A stretch of DNA of 64,000 nucleotides, from assembly GCF_032842345.1 (NCBI RefSeq), contig NZ_WBKO01000001.1, positions 620,001 through 684,000 of the forward strand, given 5' to 3'. Positions 36,870 through 45,204 of the stretch are shown here, one piece after another (the stretch's first letter is position 1; each line of letters begins with the position of its first letter). Source of the stretch: Methanoculleus caldifontis. GTDB lineage: Archaea > Halobacteriota > Methanomicrobia > Methanomicrobiales > Methanoculleaceae. The notes under the pieces were generated by a model, which made no database searches, was not told the origin of the DNA, and worked only from the letters and a program-made list of their open reading frames with translations. A program made the translations under genes and the position numbers.

Positions 36870-36892
36870 ACCCCTTTGTTTCCACTGGAAAC
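36870..36892 (-). other. Origin-recognition-box-like motif 1
   Basis: ACCCCTTTGTTTCCACTGGAAAC matches the archaeal ORB layout, a GGGG tract next to a TTTCCAsTGGAAA dyad. The orientation is inverted relative to motif 2 at 37088. Together they bound a long imperfect inverted repeat. Confidence 0.65.
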
Positions 36893-37087
36893 TCCATCTC
36901 ACAGGAATTCCGGACCACCACGTCGAGTTTTTCCCCGAGAGCGGCAGGGTGAACCGACAGAGGATCATTCCACCGGAGCGCAGATGCGAACCCGGCGATC
37001 CGTCCGGGATTTGCAGGATGGAATGCGTATCCCGTGTGTCGGAAGGGGCGGATCCCGGGTGCCCACAATTCCTGAATATATCCACAT

Positions 37088-37110
37088 CTCCAGTGGAAAT
37101 AAAGGGGTTC
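37088..37110 (+). other. Origin-recognition-box-like motif 2
   Basis: CTCCAGTGGAAATAAAGGGGTTC has the dyad followed by the G tract, opposite in orientation to motif 1. It stands about 105 bp beyond the stop of the aminotransferase gene. Confidence 0.65.
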
Positions 37111-38881: not shown

Positions 38882-40165
38882 TCACCTGAACATTGCTCTT
38901 AAACGGTTGATGTCGAGTTGCTTGAGTCGCTGGTCGTCCAGCCTCGGATCGCGCGTGACGACCTCCTCGATCTTGCTCGTCGCCGCATCGAACCACATCT
39001 CCTTCGTCCGGCCGTACCGACCGCGTGAGACGACCCGGGTGTTGATGACGCCGAGCATGTTGAGCTCGGAGATGAGATCCGTGATCCGGCGGTGCGTCAG
39101 GACGTCGAGGTCGATGATCCGGGCGATCTCCCGGTAGACCACGGTGACCTCGCCGCTCGTGAAGATCCTTTTACCCATCTGCTCGAGGATCAGCATCGCG
39201 TAGAGGACCGCCTTGCTCTGGGTCGGGAGGGTGGAGACGCACTCCACCATGCTGTCGGTCTCGATCTTCTCCTGGGCCATCCGGACGTGCTTCTCGGTCA
39301 CGCCCGCGGCGTTCTCGCGGTCTGCAAGCTCCCCCGATACCCGGAGGAGGTCGAGCGCCCGCCGGGCGTCGCCGTGCTCCTGGGCCGCGAGCGCCGCGCA
39401 GAGCGGGATGACCGTCTCGTCGAGCGCGCCCTCGATGAAGGCGATCTCGGCCCTCTGCTTGAGGATGTCGCAGAGCTGCGGGGCGTTGTAGGGGGGAAAG
39501 ACGATCTCCTCTTCAGAGAGCGAGGAGAGGACCCGGGGGTCCAGGAAGTCGGTAAACCGGAGGTCGTTTGAGATCCCGATGATGCTGACCTTCGCGAACT
39601 TCAGGTCGGAGTTGATCCGGGTGAGGTTGTAGAGGGTATCGTCACCGCTCTTCTTGACAAGCTTGTCGATCTCGTCGAGGATGATGACCATGACCCCCCC
39701 GCTGCTCTCGAGCTGGTTCTTGAGCTCCATATAGACCTGATCGGTCGGCCACCCGGTCATCGGGATGTGGTTTCTCGTGCTGTCGCTCGGGTGCTGGTCG
39801 GCGTCGTCGAGGCTGTTCGCGATCTGGGCGAGCACCCGGTACTGGGTATCGATCACTTCGCAGTTGAGGTGGACGATCCTGCACCTCGTCCCGGCGAGCG
39901 CACTGGCACCCTCGAGCTCCGTCCCCACATACCGGACCGAGGCCGTCTTCCCGGTCCCGGTCTTGCCGTAGATGAGAATGTTTGAAGGAGTCTCGTTGGT
40001 GAGGGCAGGCGCAAGGATAGAGGCAAGCTCGTCGATCTGCGGTTTCCGGTGAGGAAGGATGTGAGGACGATAGCTGTGACGCAGCACTTCCCTGTTCTTA
40101 AATATACGTCTATTGGTGAGGTATTTTTTGAAGAGGCCCATTGGATTGGTCTTATCGTCCGACAT
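38882..40165 (-). CDS. cdc6: Orc1/Cdc6 replication initiator
   Basis: The 427-residue initiator binds origin boxes and loads MCM. The AAA+ domain has the Walker A ILIYGKTGTGKTASVRYVG near residue 65, Walker B VMVIILDEIDKLV, sensor SIIGISNDLRFTDFLDPRV and a winged-helix C-terminus (FTSGEVTVVYREIARIIDLD, RRITDLISELNMLGVINTRV). GGTGACACC precedes the ATG, and CATATTAAGG about 55 bp upstream could be the TATA box. Motif 3 (ORB) stands just upstream of this, so the protein may regulate its own gene. It is adjacent to the putative origin, as in many archaea. Confidence 0.96.
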   Translation of the reverse strand: MSDDKTNPMGLFKKYLTNRRIFKNREVLRHSYRPHILPHRKPQIDELASILAPALTNETPSNILIYGKTGTGKTASVRYVGTELEGASALAGTRCRIVHLNCEVIDTQYRVLAQIANSLDDADQHPSDSTRNHIPMTGWPTDQVYMELKNQLESSGGVMVIILDEIDKLVKKSGDDTLYNLTRINSDLKFAKVSIIGISNDLRFTDFLDPRVLSSLSEEEIVFPPYNAPQLCDILKQRAEIAFIEGALDETVIPLCAALAAQEHGDARRALDLLRVSGELADRENAAGVTEKHVRMAQEKIETDSMVECVSTLPTQSKAVLYAMLILEQMGKRIFTSGEVTVVYREIARIIDLDVLTHRRITDLISELNMLGVINTRVVSRGRYGRTKEMWFDAATSKIEEVVTRDPRLDDQRLKQLDINRLRAMFR

Positions 40166-40242: not shown

Positions 40243-40265
40243 AACCCCTTCGTTTCCAGTGGAAC
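40243..40265 (-). other. Origin-recognition-box-like motif 3
   Basis: AACCCCTTCGTTTCCAGTGGAAC, with a complete dyad and G tract, lies between the cdc6 promoter and the origin core. On the complement it reads dyad first, then GAAGGGGTT. Confidence 0.75.
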
Positions 40266-40361: not shown

Positions 40362-40383
40362 GACCCCTTTGTTTCGCGTGGAG
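40362..40383 (-). other. Origin-recognition-box-like motif 4
   Basis: GACCCCTTTGTTTCGCGTGGAG is a variant box. Its complement shares CACGCGAAACAAAGGGGTC with motif 5 apart from one base, in the opposite orientation. Confidence 0.65.
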
Positions 40384-40489
40384 GGTGATGGTGATACCGC
40401 CCTGCGGTATCATCCAATCAAAGGTGATGGTGATAGTCATGTGTACCTCTGAAACTCAAGATATATAGTTTTGTCGTATCAGTACAGGG

Positions 40490-40850
40490 TCAGGGAAGAA
40501 GCAAGGAAAGCAGGATGAATGTTGTACGGGATGATTAAAACAGAGAACCGGGCTGGAAAGGGAGGAGAGAATGAAGGAAGAGAGAAGGGCGAGATGAGGG
40601 AAATACAGGGTGAAGTGGGAGAGAACGCGGGTACGGAGGCACAAAATATGGATGGAACGGAGGTTGGGGAGAGGATGTGGAGGGGGATCAGGAGGTGGGG
40701 GGCCGGAGAATGCAAGAGGATAGGAGGAAGAACTGGGGGGTAAGGTAACCAGGGAGTGAAAAGAGAGGAGAAGGGGAGGACTGGAGAGGGAGAGGATCGG
40801 GGAATGAGAAGAAAACAGGAGGGAGGGCTCGAGGGTAAGAAGCCAGGTCA
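40490..40850. repeat. Purine-rich tract, left half of the origin core
   Basis: The top strand is almost entirely A and G, with runs such as GGAGGAGAGAATGAAGGAAG and GGGAGAGGATCGGGGAATGA. It is low in complexity but not a simple tandem repeat. No gene fits. Confidence 0.85.
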
Positions 40851-40852
40851 CA

Positions 40853-40880
40853 GGACCCGGAGAACCGAATCTCCTGGTCC
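40853..40880. repeat. Hairpin at the strand-switch centre of the origin core
   Basis: GGACCCGGAGA and TCTCCTGGTCC form 11-bp arms with one mismatch around ACCGAA. A second small inverted pair ACCGGCAG/CTGCCGGT follows at about 40914-40945. They mark the transition from the purine to the pyrimidine tract. Confidence 0.6.
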
Positions 40881-40949
40881 GGGGAATGGCAACCCGATCG
40901 GAGAGCCGGATCGACCGGCAGAGTATCGGGTTCTTCCCTGCCGGTGTTG

Positions 40950-41410
40950 AGAGCTTCTCCGGATCTTGCCTTCTCCTTCCCTCCCCTCTTCGCTTCTCCA
41001 ACCCCCTTCTCGCCCTTCGTTCATATCTCTCCTTTCCCTCTCCTTTTTGCCTGTTTCAGCTCTCTTTCCTCCCCCTCTCCAGAACTGTCCCCTCTCTTCA
41101 ACCTCTCGCTCCGTGCTGGTTTCCTCCGGCAGTCCTCCTCGTTCTCTCTCCTCTCGCGCCGTCCCGGCACTCTCCCTTCTCGCTTCCCCCTTCCTCCTCC
41201 CGTCCCTGCTCTTCTGTCCCCCTCTCTTGCTCCCTTCCCCTCCGCCCTCCTCTCCTGCCCCTTCTCTTCCGCTCTTCCTCCTCCTGCCCCTTCTCTTCCG
41301 CCTTCCTCTCCTGCCCCCTTTTCTCTTCCGTTCTTCCTCCTCCTGCCCCTGCTCTTTCGCCCTCCTCTCCTGACCCCTCCTCGCTCCGCCCCTCCCTCTC
41401 CCCAACCCCG
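40950..41410. repeat. Pyrimidine-rich tract, right half of the origin core
   Basis: The top strand is almost only C and T. From about 41240 to 41390 a degenerate unit of about 29 bp recurs around five times, with the core CTCCTGCCCCTTCTCTTCCG. Several long open frames on both strands arise from this composition and look unlike proteins. Confidence 0.85.
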
Positions 41411-41425
41411 TGAGGGATCATTACA

Positions 41426-41448
41426 TTTCCACACGAAACAAAGGGGTC
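41426..41448 (+). other. Origin-recognition-box-like motif 5
   Basis: TTTCCACACGAAACAAAGGGGTC lies at the right border of the pyrimidine tract, inverted relative to motif 4. Confidence 0.65.
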
Positions 41449-41519: not shown

Positions 41520-42014
41520 ATGGAGAGCAATCATCTTAAACCCCTAATCGTGACCGGTGCCGTCATTACGGTCTCATCGAGCCGGAAAGCCGAGACCGAT
41601 ACCAGCGGGAAGACGCTCATCGACCTTCTCTCCGAGGCCGGGATCGGGGTGACCCATTACGCCGTCATCCCCGACGATATCGAGCGGATCCGGTCCGAGG
41701 TCCACCTCGCGCTTTCGCGTGCAACCTGCATCATCATCACCGGGGGCACCGGGCTCACCCCCGACGACGTGACGATCGAGGCGGTCGCGCCGCTGCTCGA
41801 GAAGACGATCGACGGGTTCGGGGAGCTCTTCCGGCTGAAAAGTTACGAGGAGATCGGGACCGCCGCGATCCTCTCGCGGGCGATTGCGGGGGTCATCGGC
41901 GGCAGGGTGGTCTTCTGCACGCCGGGTTCGACGAAGGCGGTCACCCTCGCCGCACGGGAGATCATCATCCCCGAGGTCCGGCACATCCTGACCCACGCCG
42001 GGGCAGGTCGGTGA
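41520..42014 (+). CDS. moaB: Molybdenum cofactor biosynthesis protein MoaB/MogA family
   Basis: The 164-residue protein has GAVITVSSSRKAETDTSGKT at the N-terminus, IIITGGTGLTPDDVTIEAVA near residue 82, GFGELFRLKSYEEIGTAAIL, and VFCTPGSTKAVTLAAREII. These are the molybdopterin-binding motifs of MoaB/MogA, which adenylates molybdopterin before metal insertion. Methanogens need it for formylmethanofuran and formate dehydrogenases. GGGAGA stands just upstream of the ATG at 41520. An open frame continues far upstream through the pyrimidine tract and is not part of the gene. Confidence 0.93.
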   Translation: MESNHLKPLIVTGAVITVSSSRKAETDTSGKTLIDLLSEAGIGVTHYAVIPDDIERIRSEVHLALSRATCIIITGGTGLTPDDVTIEAVAPLLEKTIDGFGELFRLKSYEEIGTAAILSRAIAGVIGGRVVFCTPGSTKAVTLAAREIIIPEVRHILTHAGAGR

Positions 42015-42083
42015 CAGCAGATCGTTTCACTTGCGAAGGATGATCACCTCATGCGAAGACTGGCTCGGTTGTGAGTAGCCCGT

Positions 42084-42274
42084 CTTCGCACCTGACGGTG
42101 CTCAAGCTCGCTTTGCTCGCCCTTCACACCTGCGGTGTTCGACTCCACTCCTGACGGAACGTCGTCCTTCGAAACCCTCTGGGTTTCTCATGCTCCGAAC
42201 GTCCCGTCCATCGCACTTCGCACCTGACGGTGCTCAAGCTCGCTCTGCTCGCCCTTCACACCTGCGGTGTTCGA
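42084..42274. repeat. Two direct copies of a 59-bp element, family B
   Basis: The unit CTTCGCACCTGACGGTGCTC followed by AAGCTCG, a short T/C variable run and CTTCACACCTGCGGTGTTCGA occurs at 42084-42142 and 42216-42274 with one or two differences. Each copy holds short inverted pairs (CACCTGACGGTG, ACACCTGCGGTGT). The reverse complement of its first half recurs at about 18990. Confidence 0.8.
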
Positions 42275-42298
42275 ACTCCGGCCCTTCGGGCCATCACA

Positions 42299-42382
42299 CT
42301 TCGCGGCTTCGCGCTCTTCGCGTGAGGCCATATCATCACTCATAAACAGTTAGCTCACGCGAAGCCGCGAAGCCGCGAAGGA
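42299..42382. repeat. Family A hairpin element
   Basis: CTTCGCGGCTTCGCGCTCTTCGCGTGAGG on the left is mirrored by CTCACGCGAAGCCGCGAAGCC on the right around a 24-bp AT-rich loop. With family B it fills 42015-42498, where I see no gene. Confidence 0.8.
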
Positions 42383-42498
42383 CGCGAAGTCTGGAAATGG
42401 CTATGTAACTCCCCCCGCATCCGGGTGCCCGAACGACGCCCCTATAGAGCATCGTCCCCCTAACTCATGCGAAAGGTATCCGGAGTCTGCCAGTTCAG

Positions 42499-43038
42499 TT
42501 ACCGGTAGACGTCGAGGAGCGCCACCCGTTCGAGGACCAGGTCGCGGAACCGCTCCTCCCCGACCACGGCAATCTCTCTTTCCGTGATCGAAAATAAGGC
42601 CGCGAGGCGTTCCCGCTTCGCGGGGTCGATCGCCTCCCAGTCCTCCTCGACGAAGGTCACAAGACCGGCAAGCCGCTCGCGGACGCCCGGCGCCGGCGGG
42701 CAGACAGCGAGATACGAGCGGTTCTCTCCCGGGTGGACCCCGAAGGACGAGCCCACCTGGCACTGCCTTGTCCCCCCGGCGTAGAGGAGGGTCTCCATCT
42801 CGAACGAGTTCGCTATCGGCTCCCCGCCTTCCCAGGACCGCCGGGCATGCCGGAGCGCCGCCTCCACGTGTTTTCGCCCCGCGAGGCGGTCGGCGTCGAG
42901 GAGGATGATGTGCGTCCCCGTCGCATCGGCGATCTTCCGGATCTCCTTGAGAAAACGGATATTGTCGTCGACGGTGAAGACCGCCTGGTAGATCTCGCAT
43001 GCTATTTCTGTCATCTCTTTTCCTGCCATTTTACTCAC
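42499..43038 (-). CDS. cgi121: KEOPS complex subunit Cgi121
   Basis: The 179-residue protein is the archaeal Cgi121 subunit, which delivers tRNA to the KEOPS complex for t6A37 synthesis. Typical features are [20 protein letters not shown] near residue 45, [20 protein letters not shown] and a C-terminal region ending [12 protein letters not shown]. It overlaps the Hel308 stop as ATGA (43035-43038), a neighbourhood found in other methanogens. Other KEOPS subunits are not in the window. Confidence 0.88.
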
Positions 43039-45179
43039 CCGAACCGGGAGAGGGTCGACTGCTCCTCGGCGACCTCTCCCACCTCCTCGCGCGTCCCCTC
43101 AACCTGCTCGAAGATCCGGGCGGCGATCCCCTGGCCGAGGATCTTTCCGACCTTCTCGGGGCCGGCGGCGCGGAGCGCCTCCACCGAGTCGATACCGTTG
43201 TTGAAGAGCCGGCGGGCCCGGACCCGGCCGATCCCCCTGATCCTGATGAGAGGCAGGAGCTCCTTCTTGATGCCGTGTTTCGCGCGGAGTTCCATCTCCT
43301 CGATCGGCCGCACCAGGTGCGGGGCAAAGAGCCCCGCGAGGTGCCGGGCCCCGTGGACCAGCCACGCGACGCTCTCCACCATCCCGTAGACGTCGCCCGG
43401 ACCGACACTGTAGCGCTCGCAGATCGCGTCCTCGCCGATCTCATCGGCCCAGTCGGCTAGGAGGAGCGCGGTCTTGAGGCTCCGGTCGAACCCCTCGCCC
43501 GCGTCCCAGGGGATCTCCGTCCAGAGTTCGTCGCGGTGGTCGGCGAGGAACCGGTCGAGGAGGTACATGTCGTCTCTCCGCACGAAGAGCGTCGGCATAT
43601 CGGGCGTCGAGCAGAGGAGGTGGAGGAGCCCGATCTCCGTATACTCCTTTCGGCCGAGCCCGATCATCGCCTTCACGATCACCTCGGCGCTCCGGGGGTC
43701 GATGTAGAGCCTTGAAACGAGCGACCCATACTCCGTCGGCTCGAGCCACTCCCCCACCTCGGTGATCATCTCCGCTTCGCGCAGGAACTCAAGCGCCCGC
43801 TGGACCGCGCGTTTGAGCGCGAGGGGGCTCTCGCCCTGGTGGGCGTAGAACGTCCCGTCCATGAACCCGAGCACCTCGTCCCGCTCGCGGGCGAACCCCG
43901 TCGCGATGAGGGAGAGGATGTGGGTGCAGAGGACCGCTTCGTCCGCGCACCGGCTCCGGACGTCTTCCGCCGCCGCCTCGATGTAGCAGGCGAAGAGCTC
44001 GTCGACCATCTCCTCGGACTTTGCGATCATGACCGCCTCGCCGTAGGGGTCGAGATGCGGCCGCCCGGCCCGCCCGGCCATCTGCCGGTACTCGCGGACC
44101 GGGATCGGGACCATCCCCTCCCCGGCGTTGAACCGGAGGTAGTCGCGGACGATCACCCGCCGGGCCGGGAGGTTTAAGCCCGCCGCGAGCGTCGGGGTGG
44201 AGGCGATCACCTTGATATGCCCCTCCCGGAACCCCGCTTCGACGATCTGCCGCTCCTCCCGCGCGAGCCCCGCGTGGTGGAACGCCGCGCCCTGCGCGAC
44301 GCAGGCGGCGAGCATCCGGCCCATCTCGGTCGCGGCGTTCGAGCGGAGTTTGTCGGCATAACCGGCGAGGACGGGGTTTGCAAGTTTCAGGCCCGAGGCC
44401 GCGCGCTTCGCGAACGCCTCGGCGTTCTTCCGTGAGCTGACGAAGACCAGGCACTGGCCCCCTTCCGCCACCGTGTCGAGGACGAGGTCCAGGTCCTCGT
44501 ACTTGCTCCGGCGCTCGACCTGGCGGTCGTGGTCGGCAAACCGGATGCAGTCCTGCAAGAAGACTCCCTCCCGCAGGTCGACCGGCCGCCAGTCGCTCTC
44601 GACGAGTTCGGCGTCCAGCCACCCGGCGAGGTCCTGTGGGTTCCCAATGGTCGCCGAGAGGGCGATGAGCTGGATCTCGGGATTCTTGTGGCGGAGCTTC
44701 GCGATCACCATCTCGAGCGTCGCCCCCCGCGAGGGGTCGTCGATCAGGTGGACCTCGTCGAGGACCAGCAGGCTGATCTCGGAGAGCCACGGCGTCCGGT
44801 TCCGGAGGAGCGAGTCGACCTTCTCGCTCGTCGCGACGATGATGTCGTTCCTCCCCAGGTAGTCGTCCCGCCGGTCGAAGTCGCCGGTGGCGATCCCGAC
44901 CCGGAGGCCTTTGCCCGAGAACTCCTCGAACTTCTCGCTCGCGAGCGCCCGCAGGGGGACGATGTAGAGGCACTTGCCTCCCCGTTTCACCTGGTGGTGC
45001 ATCGCCATCTCGGCGACAAGCGTCTTGCCGCTCGCGGTCGGGATGGCGATGAGGAGGTTCTTCCCCGAGAAAAGCCCTGCTTCGACGCAGGCCGCCTGCG
45101 GCGGGTAGAGTTCCGTGATCCCGCGGCGAGCATAGCCGGCCGCGAGATCGGGCGGGATCGGGAGGCCGGCTATCTCCAT
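43035..45179 (-). CDS. hel308: ATP-dependent DNA helicase Hel308
   Basis: The 714-residue superfamily 2 (Ski2-like) helicase acts on stalled forks with 3'-5' polarity. Motifs in order: Q-motif [13 protein letters not shown], Walker [21 protein letters not shown] near residue 48, DEVH box [15 protein letters not shown] in [10 protein letters not shown], motif [17 protein letters not shown] and [15 protein letters not shown]. The C-terminal HhH region [20 protein letters not shown] is complete. An ORB-like motif lies just upstream of the start. Its stop overlaps the Cgi121 start. Confidence 0.95.
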
Positions 45180-45181
45180 AT

Positions 45182-45204
45182 ATACCCCTTCATTTCCAGT
45201 GCAA
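45182..45204 (-). other. Origin-recognition-box-like motif 6
   Basis: ATACCCCTTCATTTCCAGTGCAAC starts 3 bases upstream of the hel308 start codon. The dyad has one mismatch (TTTCCAGTGCAAC). It is 3.7 kb from the origin core. Confidence 0.5.

What the first reader, a model, noticed from the sequence alone, without database searches (positions are those of the whole stretch)
40384..41425. Origin core with a purine tract mirrored by a pyrimidine tract
About 360 bases of nearly pure purine on the top strand are followed by a hairpin and about 460 bases of nearly pure pyrimidine. The whole is enclosed by two inverted origin boxes (motifs 4 and 5). Such mirror asymmetry is exactly what strand-specific bias at a bidirectional origin would give, but the degree here is extreme. 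It could form triplex or slipped structures, or act as a fork-polarity signal.
Basis: partly seen in the sequence, partly recalled or inferred. Interest (0 to 1): 0.8.

Follow-up and report, generated by a model that had tools for sequence, protein, structure and literature searches.

The report
Archaeal replication origin with mirrored tracts
This is the chromosomal replication start site of a methane-making archaeon (Methanoculleus), in which purines crowd onto one strand in the left half and onto the other strand in the right half; related species keep the strand composition although the sequence has turned over, a longer version of a short element known to boost replication in salt-loving archaea.

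Summary
Between orc1/cdc6 and moaB lies a 351-bp 82%-purine tract (40492-40842), a hairpin (40843-40953) and a 450-bp 87%-pyrimidine tract (40954-41403), enclosed by inverted ORBs. Scores are 165 and 279; the best tract in 440 kb of the same genome scores 54. All six ORB matches in the 2.62-Mb genome lie within 8.4 kb here, and AT skew changes sign here, so this is very probably the single oriC. Triplex and G-quadruplex motifs do not exceed shuffles. 24 Methanoculleus genomes, this one included, keep a purine tract right after a conserved AT-rich element, in the same polarity, although its sequence is unalignable between most species. Purine fraction is conserved (0.78), G content much less. 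Methanocalculus, in another family, has the same layout, and haloarchaea a short one; in Haloarcula a G-rich inverted repeat in that place is a proven enhancer. Best reading: a composition-encoded, structure-free initiation zone that helps helicase loading or first priming. Mechanism is inferred. New variant of a known kind.

The parts
38882..40165 (-). orc1/cdc6 initiator gene (427 aa)
   Evidence: NCBIfam NF001625 ORC1-type DNA replication protein, E 2.8e-181, above cut-off; 88-97% identical orthologue next to the same region in nearly all genomes of the family
40244..40263 (+). ORB1 (ACCCCTTCGTTTCCAGTGGA), beside the orc1 promoter region
   Evidence: pattern search of whole genome; same offset in relatives
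40363..40382 (+). ORB2 (ACCCCTTTGTTTCGCGTGGA), left enclosing box
   Evidence: 26-bp inverted-repeat partner of ORB3, 92% complementary
40385..40452 (+). conserved block GTGATGGTGATAC..GTATCATCCAATCAAAGGTGATGGTGATAGTCATGTGTAC, present in Methanoculleus and partly in sister genera; function unknown
   Evidence: alignments
40447..40478 (+). conserved AT-rich, TATA-like element (CTCTGAAACTCAAGATATATAGTTTT); candidate melting/start site or rightward promoter
   Evidence: most AT-rich 40-mers of the intergenic region lie at 40433-40487; element at a nearly constant offset of 255-301 bp from orc1 in most Methanoculleus and as CTCT..TATAAA in several sister genera
40492..40842 (+). purine tract (82% A+G on + strand)
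40843..40953 (.). GC-rich hairpin-forming centre; not alignable with relatives
   Evidence: fold z -3.2; alignment
40954..41403 (-). pyrimidine tract on + strand (87% C+T), purine-rich on - strand; its right part is an imperfect tandem array of about 59-bp units
41428..41447 (-). ORB3, right enclosing inverted box
41520..42014 (+). MoaB/MogA-like molybdopterin biosynthesis gene, conserved right-hand neighbour
   Evidence: TIGR00177 above cut-off; synteny in 30 of 31 f1 genomes with sequence reaching that far
36870..36889 (+). additional ORB, pairs with 37089-37108 (-)
37089..37108 (-). additional ORB (1 mismatch)
45184..45203 (+). weak additional ORB (2 mismatches) upstream of the Hel308-type helicase gene

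Best explanation
The region is the oriC1-type chromosomal origin of a Methanoculleus. SHOWN: the core is ORB1-ORB2-conserved block-AT-rich element ... ORB3. In most Methanoculleus the spacer between the AT-rich element and ORB3 is expanded (85-320 bp in several sister genera, 440-960 bp here). Its start is purine-rich on the strand running inward from ORB2; its far end is pyrimidine-rich, meaning purine-rich on the strand running inward from ORB3. What is kept is strand composition, not sequence. Each strand of the two tracts is almost free of secondary structure when single-stranded. INFERRED: the tract works as an initiation-zone element. Orc1 on the ORBs directs MCM to the DNA between them; melting starts at the AT-rich element; the tract then supplies an unstructured pyrimidine strand (bottom strand on the left, top strand on the right) as translocation strand and leading-strand template for the fork entering from each side, easing helicase engagement, RPA binding or first priming. 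[quoted passage not shown]
For: Origin: adjacent orc1, inverted ORBs, all ORB matches of the genome in this one cluster, AT-skew sign change at the locus (Mann-Whitney p 0.005 in this genome and 0.03 in G007), two single-contig relatives numbered from just beside this point. Tract: the first 50 bp after the AT element are 64-86% purine in all Methanoculleus aligned there, R always before Y. Purine fraction 0.78 +- 0.048 against G fraction 0.31 +- 0.075 over 24 genomes. ssDNA folding -0.4 to -2.5 kcal/100 nt in this tract against -17.6 +- 4.4 background; weak in all 24 genomes on the left side, mean -3.7/-2.7. Same polarity in 7 Methanocalculus genomes by GC skew and, over the first 50 bp inside the ORBs, in 9 of 9 (left) and 8 of 9 (right) haloarchaeal genera. 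In Haloarcula, mutating the G-rich repeat directly inside the ORBs reduces colony size (PMC3936714). Sulfolobus inverted ORBs flank the DUE, Orc1-1-ATP directs MCM to it, and replication starts at the DUE/ORB3 junction (PMC12141716). A. pernix Orc1 prefers T-rich ssDNA (PMC8287685).
Against: No experiment on this organism. Most other Methanomicrobiales genera lack the layout (8 of 21 genera positive, n.s.) and one (G122) has it reversed, so it is not required for an origin. The right-hand pyrimidine tract is weak in many Methanoculleus. In Haloarcula the tested change kept purines and removed G, which points to G there, whereas purine is what is kept here. Structure-freeness follows from purine content and is not independent evidence.
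Confidence: 0.4

Rival explanations
1. Non-functional spacer: the interval between AT element and ORB3 expanded by slippage and tandem duplication of simple sequence and has an extreme, locally biased mutation pattern linked to initiation, but no selected role.
For: Imperfect 59-bp tandem units in the pyrimidine tract. The tract is the fastest-changing part: G007/G013 differ at 22% of tract sites, 4% of the rest of the spacer and 9% of fourfold sites. Lengths vary widely between species.
Against: The common strand-asymmetric lesions (cytosine deamination) cause transitions and cannot change purine content. Composition and polarity persist after sequence turnover in 24 genomes and recur in Methanocalculus. 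Where the spacer is not purine-biased in the same genomes it evolves more slowly.
Confidence: 0.3
2. Transcription-coupled opening: the AT-rich element is a rightward promoter (TATAAA-like) making a purine-rich untranslated RNA that forms a stable RNA:DNA hybrid and opens or primes the origin.
For: Rightward TATA-like box at the left edge, conserved in Methanoculleus and some sister genera; the left tract is the more constant half; purine-RNA/pyrimidine-DNA hybrids are the stable kind (general knowledge).
Against: The element is kept in sister genera that lack the tract. No matching promoter was seen at the right edge. In Methanocalculus the purine tract lies on the ORB side of the AT-rich centre. 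No RNA data; no relevant Rfam match.
Confidence: 0.15
3. Tract acts on chromatin: long purine/pyrimidine runs keep histones or other nucleoid proteins off the origin, independent of polarity.
For: Composition, not sequence, is conserved.
Against: A polarity-independent role does not explain why R always precedes Y in the genomes compared, nor the same polarity in Methanocalculus. Not tested directly.
Confidence: 0.08
4. Equilibrium of ordinary replication strand bias at a bidirectional origin.
For: The mirror symmetry sits at the origin.
Against: Wrong axis, wrong GC sign and about 50-fold too strong compared with the arms; absent at the origins of sister genera.
Confidence: 0.02
5. DNA structure element: intramolecular triplex (H-DNA) or G-quadruplexes.
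For: Long R/Y strands with G-runs.
Against: Longest mirror arm 7 nt, against 7.6 and 9.0 in shuffles. No G3+ quadruplex motif in either tract, against 1.9 and 3.4 in shuffles; such motifs in only 5 of 24 relatives' spacers. The R and Y tracts are not inverted copies (local score 47 against 43.8 +- 5.3).
Confidence: 0.05

Closest known systems
Haloarcula hispanica oriC1 internal G-rich inverted repeat (Wu et al. 2014, PMC3936714)
   Same: Sits inside two inverted ORBs next to orc1/cdc6; purine/G-rich on the + strand at the left and C/pyrimidine-rich at the right, the same polarity as here; shown to enhance initiation.
   Different: There: a perfect 10-bp repeat directly inside each ORB, with an AT-rich centre. 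Here: 351 and 450 bp, imperfect, not inverted copies; the left tract starts about 110 bp inside ORB2 after an AT-rich element; purine rather than G is conserved; non-halophile.
Methanocalculus oriC (this work, G054, G109 and others)
   Same: Purine tract inside the left ORB and pyrimidine tract inside the right ORB, up to 94% purine per 100 bp.
   Different: Tracts directly at the ORBs with the AT-rich DUE in the centre, the Haloarcula order; shorter.
Saccharolobus/Sulfolobus oriC1 (ORB3-DUE-ORB2)
   Same: Inverted ORBs flanking the initiation region next to orc1-1.
   Different: A short, highly AT-rich DUE with a ucm motif; no purine/pyrimidine tracts described in the passages read (PMC12141716).
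Eukaryotic MCM activation by thymine-rich single strands (recalled, not tested)
   Same: Strand-composition preference of the helicase at origins.
   Different: Eukaryotic, T-rich rather than pyrimidine-rich; a lead only.

Membership tests
Archaeal oriC1-type (Orc1/ORB) origin | Adjacent orc1/cdc6 gene | tested here: met
   synteny
Archaeal oriC1-type (Orc1/ORB) origin | Inverted ORBs enclosing the core | tested here: met
Archaeal oriC1-type (Orc1/ORB) origin | AT-rich unwinding element between the ORBs | tested here: inconclusive
   only a short element, 70% AT over 40 bp at 40433; the rest of the inter-ORB DNA is 57-65% GC
Archaeal oriC1-type (Orc1/ORB) origin | Skew switch at the locus | tested here: met
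   weak AT-skew switch in 20-kb samples; GC skew weak
Archaeal oriC1-type (Orc1/ORB) origin | Replication initiates here in vivo; Orc1 binds the ORBs | not testable with these tools
   needs marker frequency, nascent-strand mapping, ChIP
Haloarcula-type G-rich inverted-repeat enhancer | Purine/G-rich on the ORB strand at both inner sides (polarity) | tested here: met
   50 bp inside ORB3 mean 0.73 purine, minimum 0.54 over 24 genomes
Haloarcula-type G-rich inverted-repeat enhancer | Perfect or clear inverted repeat | tested here: not met
   R tract against reverse complement of Y tract at shuffle level
Haloarcula-type G-rich inverted-repeat enhancer | Directly adjacent to both ORBs | tested here: not met
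   right tract ends 24 bp from ORB3, but the left tract starts 109 bp from ORB2
Haloarcula-type G-rich inverted-repeat enhancer | G-runs conserved | tested here: not met
   G fraction 0.21-0.45 in the first 150 bp while purine stays 0.68-0.85
Haloarcula-type G-rich inverted-repeat enhancer | Enhances initiation | not testable with these tools
   needs plasmid or chromosomal mutants
H-DNA-forming mirror repeat | Mirror repeat of at least 10 nt in an R/Y tract | tested here: not met
   longest arm 7 nt, below shuffles
G-quadruplex origin element | G3+ quadruplex motifs above chance | tested here: not met
   0 in both tracts; 2 on the bottom strand of the whole spacer, and in 5 of 24 genomes overall
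Replication strand bias | Same axis and sign as the chromosome arms | tested here: not met

The most novel reading that the evidence does not exclude
A compositional rather than sequence-coded cis-element: purines are partitioned inward from each ORB so that both strands of the initiation zone stay unstructured and polar, in a GC-rich genome with only a short AT-rich unwinding region; the layout arose or was elaborated independently in Methanoculleus and Methanocalculus, with short versions in haloarchaea.
Probability: 0.4. Interest if true: 0.75.

Novelty: new variant of a known kind. Interest (0 to 1): 0.55.

Why it matters
How archaeal (and eukaryotic) helicases pick strand and direction between inverted initiator sites is open. 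An origin in which strand composition, not sequence, is preserved with ORB-linked polarity gives a natural, mutable test: flip or replace the tract and measure initiation. It also suggests that the Haloarcula G-rich enhancer is one case of a wider layout.

Tried and rejected
Replication strand bias: wrong axis and sign. Triplex and G4 (31): not above shuffles. Giant inverted repeat between the tracts: not above shuffles. Coding sequence: interruptions show no clear 3-base phase and the region does not align between relatives, so the ORFs across the tracts are taken as spurious. RNA family: only a sub-threshold match to a mammalian lncRNA model, 15.3 against 55 bits. Order-wide rule for all inverted ORBs: not supported. 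Strict protection of purine sites: transition fraction in the tract (0.69) is above fourfold sites (0.58) but below the rest of the spacer (0.78), so there is no simple per-site purifying signal. Polarised Y>R and R>Y changes were too few to conclude.

Full report
OBSERVATION. The interval between orc1/cdc6 (38882-40165, minus) and a moaB/mogA-like gene (ATG at 41520, plus) is 1.35 kb. It carries ORB1 (40244), ORB2 (40363), a conserved block, an AT-rich element, a purine tract (40492-40842, 82%), a GC-rich hairpin region (40843-40953, z -3.2), a pyrimidine tract (40954-41403, 87%) and the inverted ORB3 (41428). Tract scores of 165 and 279 compare with a maximum of 54 in 440 kb of the same genome.

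IT IS THE ORIGIN. The ORB pattern occurs six times in the 2.62-Mb genome with up to two mismatches, all within 8.4 kb in this window. AT skew at fourfold sites is mostly positive on the left and mostly negative on the right (p 0.005, and 0.03 in relative G007). orc1, origin and moaB are syntenic through the family. In vivo initiation was not testable.

NOT REPLICATION BIAS. Arms: left GC -0.012, AT +0.028; right GC +0.005, AT -0.031; purine 0.50 on both sides. The leading strand is thus faintly G+T-rich. The tract is purine/pyrimidine-biased, GC +0.7 left and -0.7 right: a different axis, opposite GC sign and about 50 times the size.

COMPARATIVE. In Methanoculleus, Orc1 is 92-97% identical in the genomes with the tract, yet the spacer right of the AT element is unalignable between most species, apart from close pairs. 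Even so the first 50 bp after the element are 64-86% purine, and R precedes Y in the genomes carrying the tract. One genome, G034, has only a weak tract. Basal members G011 and G031 and genera g2-g5 lack it, and in several of these the element-to-ORB3 distance is only 85-240 bp (G001, where the element was not found, gives 321), so the tract looks like an expansion inside an older core. The purine fraction of the first 150 bp is 0.78 +- 0.048, close to the binomial 0.033, while G is 0.31 +- 0.075, twice the binomial value.

TURNOVER. In the cleanest pair (G007/G013) tract divergence is 22%, against 4% for the rest of the spacer and 9% at fourfold sites (p 2e-9 and 6e-4). The ratio varies between pairs: it is about equal in G009/G015 and reversed in G003/G004 against a 'rest' that includes the pyrimidine tract. 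Duplication contributes too: the pyrimidine tract contains about three imperfect 59-bp units.

ELSEWHERE. Across Methanomicrobiales, excluding Methanoculleus, there is no general rule (8 of 21 genera positive), and G122 is reversed. Methanocalculus, in another family, shows GC skew +0.39 to +0.76 left and -0.30 to -0.77 right in 7 of 7 genomes, with 74-90% purine just inside the left ORB and 16-27% inside the right in the three measured. Its sister group Methanocorpusculum-like g20 does not (genus names from matching contig lengths, or inferred). In haloarchaea the first 50 bp inside the ORBs are purine-rich on the ORB strand in 9 of 9 genera (left) and 8 of 9 (right) (pair choice was automatic). 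[quoted passage not shown] I found no description of such tracts in methanogens in the papers searched.

PHYSICAL PROPERTY. Either strand of either tract folds at -0.4 to -2.5 kcal/100 nt, against -17.6 +- 4.4 in the window. The left tract is weakly structured in all 24 relatives (mean -3.7/-2.7), and the G007 background never rises above -6.0. This follows from composition but is a plausible selected property in a GC-rich genome. H-DNA and G4 motifs are not above shuffles.

MECHANISM (inferred). Orc1 at inverted ORBs directs MCM to the DNA between them (Sulfolobus; PMC12141716), and Orc1 itself prefers T-rich single strands (A. pernix; PMC8287685). On this reading the AT element melts first and the tract offers an unstructured pyrimidine strand to the inward-going helicase and primase from each side. 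Polarity, composition conservation and the Haloarcula enhancer support it; absence from many genera means it tunes rather than enables initiation. A neutral spacer with strong local bias remains a serious rival (0.3), and a promoter/R-loop scheme a lesser one (0.15).

VERDICT. A new variant of a known kind: a long compositional counterpart of the haloarchaeal intra-ORB enhancer.

Noticed in passing
36870-37108: A second inverted ORB pair (about 200 bp apart) between purA and the aminotransferase gene, 3.3 kb left of the origin; possibly an accessory origin or Orc1-titration site.
   Followed up: partly
45184-45203: A degenerate ORB just upstream of the Hel308-type helicase gene (43035-45179).
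   Followed up: no
40385-40452: Conserved GTGATGRTGATA direct/inverted motif between ORB2 and the AT-rich element, kept in sister genera; may bind an unknown origin factor.
   Followed up: partly
42070-42400: Repeated phrases (TTCGCACCTGACGGTGCTCAAGCTCGCT.. and CACACCTGCGGTGTTCGA..) in the gap after moaB.
   Followed up: no
L118-L125, G070 (L122): In a Methanogenium-like genome (G070) a 215-bp purine tract lies outside, left of, its ORBs rather than between them.
   Followed up: no
G240 (L273) 1414-1794: A strong 380-bp purine tract (score 227) amid ORB-like sites upstream of orc1 in a genome of another family in the phylum; layout not worked out.
   Followed up: no
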